A stretch of 64,000 nt of DNA, taken from the NCBI GenBank assembly GCA_017506865.1, contig JAFCMP010000019.1, positions 372,001 through 436,000 of the forward strand. Direction: 5' to 3'. The notes below the pieces were generated by a model. It worked only from the letters and a program-made list of their open reading frames with translations, was not told the DNA's origin and searched no databases. Position numbers and translations under genes: made by a program. Source of the stretch: Tribonema minus. Taxonomy: Eukaryota; Sar; Xanthophyceae; Tribonematales; Tribonemataceae. Positions 28,105 to 58,510 of this stretch are shown here, one piece after another. Every line of letters begins with the position of its first letter. The first letter of the stretch is position 1.

Positions 28105-31100
28105 CTAGTGGGCACCGTCAGCGGCGGCTGCGCCGGCGCCGTGATGCCCATTGCCATTGCCGTTGCCGCCGTTGCCGCTGACGCGCGTGAGCTCCTCGTC
28201 TTCCGCAACCGCGAGCAGCTCTGCAAGAGCTCCGCTCTTCTCGCACAGCGCGCGGAACAGCGAGTGCGGGTCGCGCAGCAGCGCCAGCGGCGGCGCGTAC
28301 CTGCAAAGATGGAACCGGACATTAACGATTTAGTCGACAGACCGAGTTGCAAATCGAGCTTTGACAGGCTTTTACTCACAACTCGGCGTCCCAGACACAG
28401 GTCAAATAGATTGATCCACATCCTCTGATTTCCCTTCATGAAGGGTGACGCGTGGAGTCTAGCAACTCGGTCATCGAACGCAATGATCATCATGTACTTA
28501 CTCGGCGACGCGGCCGCGCTCCAGCACGAGGATGCGGTCGTAGAAGATGATGGTGTGGAGGCGGTGCGCGATGCACAGGATCGTGCAGTCGCGCAGCTCG
28601 GAGCGCATCACCTCCTGGATGAGGATGTCGGTCTCGGGGTCCACCGCCGCGGTCGCTTCGTCCATGACCTGACGACAGAGGGCGGGGGGGGGGGGGAGGT
28701 CCGAACGGCGGCATGTCATGAGTGCGGTGCGGTGCCGCTGGTCTGTGCATTGATGTGCGATGGCGCATCGTTGAACGGCGCAAGTGCAGAAGAGCCGTCC
28801 GTAGCGTGAGCAGAGCGCACACATGATCCGTGCGTATTTGTGCAGGTGCATTGTAAAACGGAGCGGGAGTTGCAGTGCAAACTGCGTTTCATAGCGCAGC
28901 GCGGTGGAGCCTGCGCAGTTGAGCCTGGACTTCGTGTTAATCTGATGATGCATCAGGCGGAGTGGGGCGCGTGCAGATGGGCGTTGCAGAGCCGATTACA
29001 CGCGTGTGATGCGTTTGTACTGGTGCAGGTGCATCATAGTCCATGTCTTTAAAGATGGCGGTTGCGTGAGCGGAACGGGCGGTGTAATCCGTGAGTGCCG
29101 GTCGGCGCGGGGTGCATCACGCAACTGGCCGACCAGCAGGCGATGCAGGCGCATGCGTGCGCAAATCGTGACATATCTGCGTGGTCGTGAGCAGCCGCCT
29201 CCTGGCGCGCCATTGCCACCTTGCATTCGCTCAGACAACAACACGAAGCGACGCCTTGCGTGTGTGCGCCCAGGTGTTGTCAATACAACACATCTCGGCA
29301 TCTGTGCGAGTGTCGATACACCGCACCTCGGTACCTGCACGAGTGTCGTACAGGTACCGAGTACCGAGACGCGTTGCGTCGACAACACCTGGGCGCACAC
29401 GCGGCAGAAAGGCATGCGCGCGCTCACCAGAATTGACGCGCGCCGCACGAGCGCGCGCGCCATGCACATGAGCTGGCGCTGCCCCATGCTAAGGTTGGAC
29501 CCGCCCTCCTCCACAACGGCGTCAAGGGAGGTGACGCTCCGCGCGAGGTGCGCGCGCTGCAGCGCCGACCACAGGTCCACGTCGCTGCGGGCGTGGCGGC
29601 GGCGGGAGCGCAGGTGGGTGGTGGCATTGATAGAGAGTTTTCTGAGAATAAATCATGAAGGATACTTGTCAATAATTCACATATAGGTGACGCTCCGCGC
29701 GAGGTGTGCGCGCTGCAGCGCCGACCACAGGTCCACGTCGCTGCAAGTGGCGCGGCGGGAGCGCAGCAGGCGACGTTTACAGAGCATGGTCAGGAAGTAA
29801 ACACTTCAAAACACAAACAAAAGTACAAGTATAAAAGTATAGAAGTACAAGGGTAGCTGTCAGCCAGGTGACACTCCGCACCAGGCACAGCAGCATGCAG
29901 TGCGCAGCGCGCCGCCACTCATGTGTGCTTGAGATGAGAGCCGTTTGTTTCCCTCTACAGCGTGGCAACAATGAGCTTCTCACGCATTGCGCTCACATGT
30001 GCTCGTCAAAGGGGTCGAGGTTGGAGCGAATCATCCCACGGAACAGGACGGCAATGATGAGCATAAATTATGTTCAACACAGATACACCTTACAGTAAGC
30101 ATGAGGGTAAACACTAGCCCTTGCGTGTGCAGCAGCAGCAGCGCGCAGCCACTCACGTGTGCTCATCAAAGGGGTCGAGGTTAGAGCCAATTGTTTCCCT
30201 CCACAGCATGGCAACAATGAGCTTCTCGCGCATTGCGCTCGACACCGTCACACCGTTGCGTTGGCGCAAGGGCCGATCCTGAGCATACAGCATGCCCTAA
30301 TGCAGCGCTACGCCACTCACGTGTGCTCATCAAAGGGGTCCAGGTTGGAGCGAATCGTCCCCCTGAACAGGACCGGATCCTGCGGCACGATGGCCAGGCG
30401 CGAGCGCAGATCCTCCAGGCCCATGGTCAGTATGTCCACGCCGTCGATCACGATGCTGCCGCGCTTGGGCTCGACCAATCGGAACAGCGCCGCCGTGAGC
30501 GACGACTTGCCGGCACCTGCCCAGCGAGCGAGCGAATTGCAAGGGTTTGATCATCGCGCTCTTCTTCTATGCTTGCAGAGTAGTGGCTTTGGCGTGAGGT
30601 TGCCAAGGTCCGTCTTCACATGCTTCTGGACTCTTCAAACACCACCCGCCCCTCAACTGGGCAACCCACATCCGCTGCTGCCGCGCGATAAGAAGATGCT
30701 GACTGATTGGAGACTATTGACGTGGCCAACATCAGCACGCCGCCGCCGCTGCGCATGCAACACAGGCACCTGCCACATCATCCGTTCTGACCTCGACCGT
30801 CTTCAACAACTTCACCCGTCTGTAAAGCAAGTCTCACCAGTGCGGCCTGCAATGCCAATGCGCATCCGCAACCGAACCCTGAAGGCAGCAACAGCACAGA
30901 CTCATGAGGTACTCCGAAGTAATTTTATGAATCACTGCATGCAAAATCGCGCGTGCACCAGCGCCGCTGCGCCATGCCACAGCCCCCTCCCCCCCCCCCT
31001 ACCTCCACTCTCTCTAAGTTCAGCCACATCTGCCGGGGTCTCACCGGTGCGGCCCACGATGCCAATGCGCGTCCGCGGCTCAACGTTGAAGGTCATGCCC

Positions 31101-58510: not shown

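What the first reader, a model, noticed from the sequence alone, without database searches (positions are those of the whole stretch)
28105..58510. Systematic tandem arrays of exon-intron junctions fill the introns of one gene
At least 15 of the transporter's junctions (ends of exons 2, 3, 4, 5, 7, 10, 16, 19, 20, 24, 27; starts of exons 6, 7, 9, 10, 11, 16, 28) have been copied into the adjoining intron. Each copy has a few to ~70 exon bases, the splice site and flanking intron, with 60-260-bp periods and up to seven members. Copies always stay next to their source, and similarity usually falls with distance. This differs from introner elements, which are dispersed and similar across introns. 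It suggests a junction-anchored process (replication slippage or template switching at splice-site sequences, or R-loop-linked repair), or selection for decoy or backup splice sites.
Basis: seen in the sequence. Interest (0 to 1): 0.95.

Follow-up and report, generated by a model that had tools for sequence, protein, structure and literature searches.

The report
Exon-intron junction repeats in alga introns
In the yellow-green alga Tribonema minus, introns have grown by repeated local duplication that often takes a piece of the neighbouring exon along, leaving rows of copied exon-intron junctions that show no sign of being selected for anything; a few such cases were known from lancelets, and here they occur in several of the genes examined.

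Summary
The window lies on contig C19 of a 158 Mb assembly that matches Tribonema minus (Xanthophyceae). The gene is an ABCC/MRP-type transporter that I model with 30 exons. Copies are local and direct; the four arrays searched genome-wide were found only at their own locus.

The reading as 'junction-anchored' or 'decoy' is not supported. Such arrays also occur in HSP70 and TCP-1 genes and in a second gene of this window; one ABC gene has none. In introns of 700 bp or more, local repeats are as dense in mid-intron as near junctions. Copying decays into exons over about one repeat unit (median 134 bp), as boundary-blind tandem duplication predicts. Copied GT/AG decay like nearby exon bases. Copies share derived changes, so they arose from each other. 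One residue remains: more copying at donors than at acceptors (21 v 7 introns, p=0.013).

Lancelet 'mirages' are the same kind of thing. New here: a stramenopile, many junctions, and a quantified boundary-blind pattern. Five copies appear as exons in the public protein model.

The parts
28105..58510 (-). ABCC/MRP-type transporter gene, 30 exons (model); exon 1 58231-58510, exon 30 ends near 28105
   Evidence: splice-site pairing; homologs; ABC_membrane PF00664 E 6.9e-33 in the first 613 aa
56531..57071 (-). five copies of the end of exon 2 (junction at 57188), period about 123-127 bp; a sixth at 56116-56155
   Evidence: only at its own locus
54387..55259 (-). five copies of the end of exon 3 (junction at 55387)
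52688..53451 (-). four copies of the end of exon 4 (junction at 53723)
   Evidence: only at its own locus
51343..52073 (-). seven stretches copied from the end of exon 5 (junction at 52149), six crossing the junction
   Evidence: only at its own locus
50866..51094 (-). two copies of the start of exon 6 (junction at 50820), period about 115 bp
   Evidence: only at its own locus
49948..50329 (-). five stretches copied from the start of exon 7 (junction at 49838), four crossing the junction
49168..49531 (-). four copies of the end of exon 7 (junction at 49696); the peptide of 49205-49225 is in the protein model P0002
48142..48227 (-). copy of the start of exon 9 (junction at 48063)
46292..46345 (-). 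copy of the start of exon 10 (junction at 46065), reaching 3 bases into the intron part
45581..45896 (-). three copies of the end of exon 10 (junction at 45975); the peptide of 45740-45760 is in P0002
44905..45040 (-). copy of the start of exon 11 (junction at 44825)
42374..42566 (-). two copies of the end of exon 14 (junction at 42623); the peptide of 42384-42470 is in P0002
40565..40977 (-). three copies of the start of exon 16 (junction at 40428); the peptides of 40563-40595 and 40903-40935 are in P0002
39122..39266 (-). copy of the end of exon 16 (junction at 40305), about 1.1 kb away
36502..36607 (-). copy of the end of exon 19 (junction at 36674)
35519..35616 (-). copy of the end of exon 20 (junction at 35701)
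32151..32463 (-). three stretches copied from the end of exon 24 (junction at 32535), two crossing the junction
30790..30885 (-). copy of the end of exon 26 (junction at 31045)
29885..30206 (-). three copies of the end of exon 27 (junction at 30321)
29685..29766 (-). copy of the start of exon 28 (junction at 29584), 96% identical
24254..24852 (+). same phenomenon in another gene of the window: five copies of an exon start whose original begins at 24950
   Evidence: 89-92% identical; TRF

Best explanation
These are 'mirage'-type arrays: minisatellite-like local tandem duplications, roughly 70-270 bp apart, that arise in T. minus introns without regard to the exon-intron boundary. A duplication that straddles a boundary is harmless if splicing still uses the outer, original site, so it survives; one that lies deep in an exon does not. 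Once two copies exist, they duplicate further from each other, the intronic copies decay neutrally, and the intron lengthens. Shown here: locality, direct orientation, flat density across long introns, exon fall-off over about one unit, shared derived changes among copies, decay of copied splice sites at the rate of nearby exon bases, longer introns where copies exist (an association). Inferred: that splicing ignores the copies, and that the mutational step is replication slippage or unequal exchange.
For: More than one gene: 48 of 200 junctions and 38 of 100 introns in 14 gene pieces carry copies, against 4 of 200 for the reversed introns; in the HSP70 set alone 15 of 84 junctions, 12 of 42 introns. 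Introns with copies have median 849 bp, without 511 bp, p=4e-7. Intron-only repeat coverage is flat in introns of 700 bp or more, and there 60-nt intron windows are positive at 35-40% wherever they lie, against 32% for acceptor-side exon starts. Exon fall-off fits the unit-length model in 6 of 8 bins. Copies share derived changes: 141 sites changed in both of a pair, 61 expected if each was copied independently, 115 of the 141 to the same base (94 pairs, not independent of one another). Direct repeats cover 16.7% of intron bases, inverted 1.3%. Copied GT/AG decay like exon neighbours. The donor excess (21 introns donor only, 7 acceptor only, McNemar p=0.013) fits tolerance: an original donor is transcribed before its copies, whereas a copied acceptor lies upstream of the original and may win (inference).
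Against: Family counts look junction-rich: reading by eye, about 33 of 44 repeat families include a junction. Donor-side exon ends are copied more than intron windows (59% against 35-40% in introns of 700 bp or more), and the donor 0-40 bin is above expectation (28 v 16.8, p=0.003) while the acceptor 80-120 bin is below it (1 v 5.3, p=0.04). Of 63 recent (92% or more) local repeats in 359 kb only 8 are clean head-to-tail duplications and 55 are shorter than their offset; the scan allows no gaps, so some of this is indels, but later deletion, conversion or non-tandem copying probably also act. The C279 ABC gene has none in 20 introns. No RNA evidence.
Confidence: 0.78

Rival explanations
1. A junction-targeted copying process (R-loop-linked repair, template switching at splice sites, or RNA-templated repair) inserts exon-intron junctions into introns.
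For: Donor-adjacent exon windows are copied more than the boundary-blind model predicts (28 v 16.8); many recent repeats are spaced, not head-to-tail; most repeat families include a junction (read by eye).
Against: Repeat density is flat across long introns; the acceptor side shows no excess in the 0-40 bin (16 v 15.4); the exon-side ends of copies lie at a median of 49 (donor) and 37 (acceptor) bases from the splice site, not at it (intron-side ends were not measured beyond 45 bases); copies descend from one another. Part of the donor excess is expected because a conserved exon source keeps copies recognisable longer, though that should also hold for acceptors.
Confidence: 0.1
2. Copies are kept by selection as decoy, backup or alternative splice sites or exons.
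For: The peptides of five copies are in the protein model P0002, and many copies retain GT or AG.
Against: Retention equals or nearly equals that of neighbouring exon dinucleotides; whether the modelled exons have RNA support is unknown.
Confidence: 0.05
3. Introner-like or transposon-borne repeats.
For: Introns are repeat-rich; intron 16 does hold a dispersed element.
Against: Four arrays searched in three queries match only their own locus (the tool skips very common words and scores only its best candidates); at the 24 positive junctions the exon end matches its own intron better than any of 28 others; direct matches outnumber inverted 86 to 6.
Confidence: 0.02
4. Assembly artefact.
For: Tandem arrays are prone to misassembly; a C7 run at 44172-44178 breaks the frame of exon 12.
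Against: Copies differ from their source by 4-28% and vary in spacing; the same pattern occurs on other contigs.
Confidence: 0.03

Closest known systems
'Mirages' in lancelet (amphioxus) genes: Adh3, globins BflGb6 and BflGb9, TnC, PGBD5 (PMC3087553, PMC3902484; passages read)
   Different: reported there gene by gene in a chordate; here in a stramenopile, at 24 of 58 junctions of one gene and 48 of 200 over 14 gene pieces, with a test that copying ignores the boundary
[quoted passage not shown] potato RdRp case PMC4974935, abstract read)
   Same: tandem duplication in or across exon-intron sequence; duplicated splice signals
   Different: there a new intron is created; here existing introns lengthen and the coding sequence appears unchanged
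Introners (PMC9860276, search listing with start of abstract only)
   Same: repetitive intron sequence
   Different: introners insert copies of themselves into many genes; the arrays tested here are private to one locus
Alternatively spliced human introns from tandem arrays, and internal gene duplication with intron creation (Zhuo 2007; Gao and Lynch 2009; titles seen in a reference list)
   Same: by title: tandem duplication within genes that alters intron structure
   Different: papers not read; no further comparison made

Membership tests
Mirage (lancelet) | tandem duplication spanning an exon-intron boundary | tested here: met
   52 of 59 copies in the gene cross the junction
Mirage (lancelet) | minisatellite-like unit (10-160 bp reported) | tested here: met
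   spacing median 134, 5-95% 71-268 bp; the upper part exceeds the reported range
Mirage (lancelet) | both donor and acceptor boundaries affected | tested here: met
   31 of 100 donor and 17 of 100 acceptor junctions
Mirage (lancelet) | turnover by duplication among copies | tested here: met
   141 v 61 expected sites changed in both copies of a pair
Mirage (lancelet) | does not disturb regular splicing | not testable with these tools
   no RNA data; the outer sites give one open frame except at the C7 run in exon 12
Mirage (lancelet) | length instability between haplotypes or cells | not testable with these tools
   one assembly; the four arrays searched lie at a single locus
Introner | similar sequence in many introns genome-wide | tested here: not met
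   four arrays; this gene
[quoted passage not shown]
   copies lie inside existing introns; the extra exons of P0002 would split introns if real
Transposable element | dispersed copies, inverted or terminal repeats | tested here: not met
   arrays are local and direct; the intron 16 element is dispersed

The most novel reading that the evidence does not exclude
T. minus introns grow chiefly by an ongoing local duplication process with a true bias at 5' splice sites: the conserved exon end keeps re-seeding the array, so long introns are built largely from decayed copies of their own junctions, and these copies feed new alternative exons, some already visible in the public protein model.
Probability: 0.15. 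Interest if true: 0.8.

Novelty: new member of a known kind. Interest (0 to 1): 0.5.

Why it matters
It extends a curiosity of a few lancelet genes to a distant lineage and to several genes there. It offers a transposon-free route to long introns and a natural experiment on splice-site choice: some junctions face up to seven near-copies of themselves, and donor and acceptor copies can be compared. It also warns that automatic annotation can take such copies for exons, as P0002 suggests.

Tried and rejected
Junction anchoring was first suggested by counting families by eye; positional tests removed most of it. Introners and transposons: rejected for the arrays tested. Selection on copied sites: no signal. 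Rfam scan of the window: nothing at the curated thresholds. Near-identical HSP70 copies C179/C90 (99% identical over the stretch fetched) differ by one 29-base local repeat step, and C522a/b intron 3 by a 106-base gap among others; neither is a clean junction case. A greedy mapping of P0002 went astray after exon 6; the inserted peptides were then placed by exact search. Breakpoint homology could not be settled: 7 clean two-copy cases, values -7 to 60, median 1.

Dropped before counts: the C39 gene; all but one join each of C46 and C101; the unclear middle of the C279 ABC gene (P0017 residues about 518-674). Of the HSP70 places, ten regions were fetched; further ones (for example on C79, C257, C12, C21, C112, C24) were not, and C179 and C90 were fetched only in part. 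Of ten TCP-1 regions asked for, seven were never fetched and two of the other three only in part; locus L035 was used only in the scan. One C279 exon start was wrong (100 introns) and corrected from then on (101 introns); rests, and the per-gene junction count for C279 was not redone. The nulls use 40 sampled introns of other gene families. The splice-site weights were set by hand and the coding scores came from these same genes.

Full report
What the window is. The window is G000:C19:372001-436000, in an assembly of 158,181,000 bases and 554 contigs. C19 is 495,525 bases long, exactly the contig length listed for P0002, an NCBI protein of Tribonema minus. Residues 5-446 of P0002 map exactly to my exons 1-6, and it carries exon peptides up to exon 16 (one search read). 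T. minus is a xanthophyte (Stramenopiles). The genome paper (Mahan et al. 2021) was seen only as a reference in PMC10606923 and is not held.

The gene. On the minus strand I model 30 exons with GT-AG introns. The first 613 residues hold the ABC membrane domain; the two nucleotide-binding halves I recognise by motif (recalled, not searched). The best-scoring homologs of the 120 listed are mostly ABCC/MRP-type transporters. A run of seven C at 44172-44178 breaks the frame of exon 12, perhaps an assembly error.

The copies. Exon ends were compared with their own and with 28 other introns: 24 of 58 junctions score best in their own intron, against about 2 by chance. A separate search with shuffled thresholds gave 59 copies at 24 junctions, 52 crossing the junction; 22 junctions are common to both lists. 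Direct self-matches number 86, all within 1.5 kb; inverted ones 6, confined to introns 9, 16 and 28. Four arrays searched through the genome in three queries were found only at their own place (the second match is the array's own source at exon 4), while the element in intron 16 hits four other contigs.

Not one gene. HSP70 genes (seven genes and two fragments, 42 introns) have copies at 15 of 84 junctions, in 12 of 42 introns. Pooled with two TCP-1 genes (one in part), a second ABC gene and the window gene: 48 of 200 junctions and 38 of 100 introns, against 4 of 200 when the own intron is reversed. Genes differ greatly: the window gene 25 of 58 by this measure, C190 7 of 12, C41 5 of 16, the C279 ABC gene 0 of 40, the C522 pair 0 of 20, C548 0 of 10. 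In 20 sampled 10-kb stretches, on average 12% of bases lie in local direct repeats (range 0 to 32%) and 2% in inverted ones. A second gene in this window has five copies of an exon start. For context, the brown alga Ectocarpus also has long introns (median 524 bp) of which 20.1% of sequence is transposons (PMC12477816, passages).

Is the junction special? Masking exons and looking only within introns, repeat coverage does not rise towards the ends: 0.22, 0.24, 0.22, 0.23, 0.25 from the ends to the middle in introns of 700 bp or more; over all 101 introns it is lowest at the ends (0.08-0.09) and highest in the middle (0.24-0.31), in part an edge and length effect. With windows of equal length and equal test in introns of 700 bp or more, intron positions are positive at 35-40%, acceptor-side exon starts at 32% (13 of 40), donor-side exon ends at 59% (23 of 39), and exon positions 80-140 bases inside at 12% (2 of 16, donor side) and 0% (0 of 14) (counts worked out from the printed fractions). 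In 40-base steps (introns of 500 bp or more) the donor profile is 0.03, 0.10, 0.16, 0.43 in the exon and 0.24-0.33 in the intron; the acceptor profile 0, 0.02, 0.15, 0.25 and 0.23-0.33. A model in which a unit with the observed length spectrum falls at random predicts six of the eight exon bins; the donor 0-40 bin is too high (28 v 16.8, p=0.003) and the acceptor 80-120 bin too low (1 v 5.3, p=0.04). These tests are not corrected for multiple testing, and windows of one intron are not independent.

Donor against acceptor. Copies are found at the donor only in 21 introns, at the acceptor only in 7, at both in 10 and at neither in 62 (p=0.013); without the window gene 10 and 3. In the first 40 exon bases 28 of 65 donor and 16 of 65 acceptor windows are positive (p=0.04), in the first 80 37 of 122 and 24 of 120 (p=0.08); intron-side windows show no clear difference (40 of 131 v 32 of 122, p=0.49). 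I read this as tolerance: a duplicated donor lies downstream of the original, which is transcribed first, while a duplicated acceptor lies upstream of the original and may capture splicing. A conserved exon source also keeps copies recognisable longer, but that should hold for acceptors too. This step is inference.

How copies arise. If each copy had been made afresh from the exon, two copies should share few changes. They share many: 141 sites changed in both, 61 expected, 115 of them to the same base (94 pairs). So copies breed copies, as in a tandem array. Identity falls only weakly with distance. Recent repeats (92% or more) are mostly not clean head-to-tail pairs: 8 of 63, in a scan without gaps. 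Short near-identical patches inside older arrays (for example 55 bases at 98% in C190) suggest conversion between copies, or deletion of spacers. The mutational mechanism is therefore not settled beyond 'local, direct, array-like'.

No sign of function. Copied GT is intact in 49 of 63 donor copies and AG in 17 of 21, against 0.77 and 0.70 for nearby exon dinucleotides. Yet copies can mislead: P0002 contains, between true exon peptides, the peptides encoded by the copies at 49205-49225, 45740-45760, 42384-42470, 40903-40935 and 40563-40595. Whether RNA supports these I could not see.

What is known. [quoted passage not shown] A passage of PMC3902484 adds PGBD5 and troponin C. That is the same kind of thing. 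Ten paper searches listed no title that reports it in Tribonema or another stramenopile; the lists are capped and the library holds open-licence papers only.

Verdict. Real, found in several genes on several contigs, best explained as boundary-blind local duplication tolerated by splicing: a known kind, in a new lineage and at high density in some genes. A donor-side excess keeps a more interesting reading alive.

Noticed in passing
window 24254-24988, + strand: Another gene has five copies of an exon start (original at 24950) in the stretch before it, 89-92% identical.
   Followed up: partly
window 18753-18962: Tandem array of period 111 that ends at an exon-like stretch (VAQGLLHLI); possibly a further junction array.
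   Followed up: no
window 39120-40110 (intron 16): Element with near-perfect inverted arms of about 147 bases and dispersed matches on contigs C18, C88, C25 and C101.
   Followed up: partly
window about 46870-47460 (intron 9): Inverted pair of about 97 bases (84%), possibly another mobile element.
   Followed up: no
window 58552-61677, + strand: Long open frame resembling a Ty3/gypsy-type polyprotein, directly beyond the 5' end of the transporter gene (name by eye, not searched).
   Followed up: no
window 44172-44178: Run of seven C that breaks the reading frame of exon 12; may be an assembly error.
   Followed up: partly
window 9334-13332, - strand: Open frame of 1332 codons, very rich in Ala and Arg with repeated W motifs; function unknown.
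   Followed up: no
G000 C51:21979-22639: Three successive matches that begin at nearly the same place of the TCP-1 family (positions 51-53), the last the longest: probably a junction array visible in the family search itself.
   Followed up: no
L037 and L038: Two 99% identical HSP70 gene copies differ in one intron by a 29-base local repeat step.
   Followed up: partly
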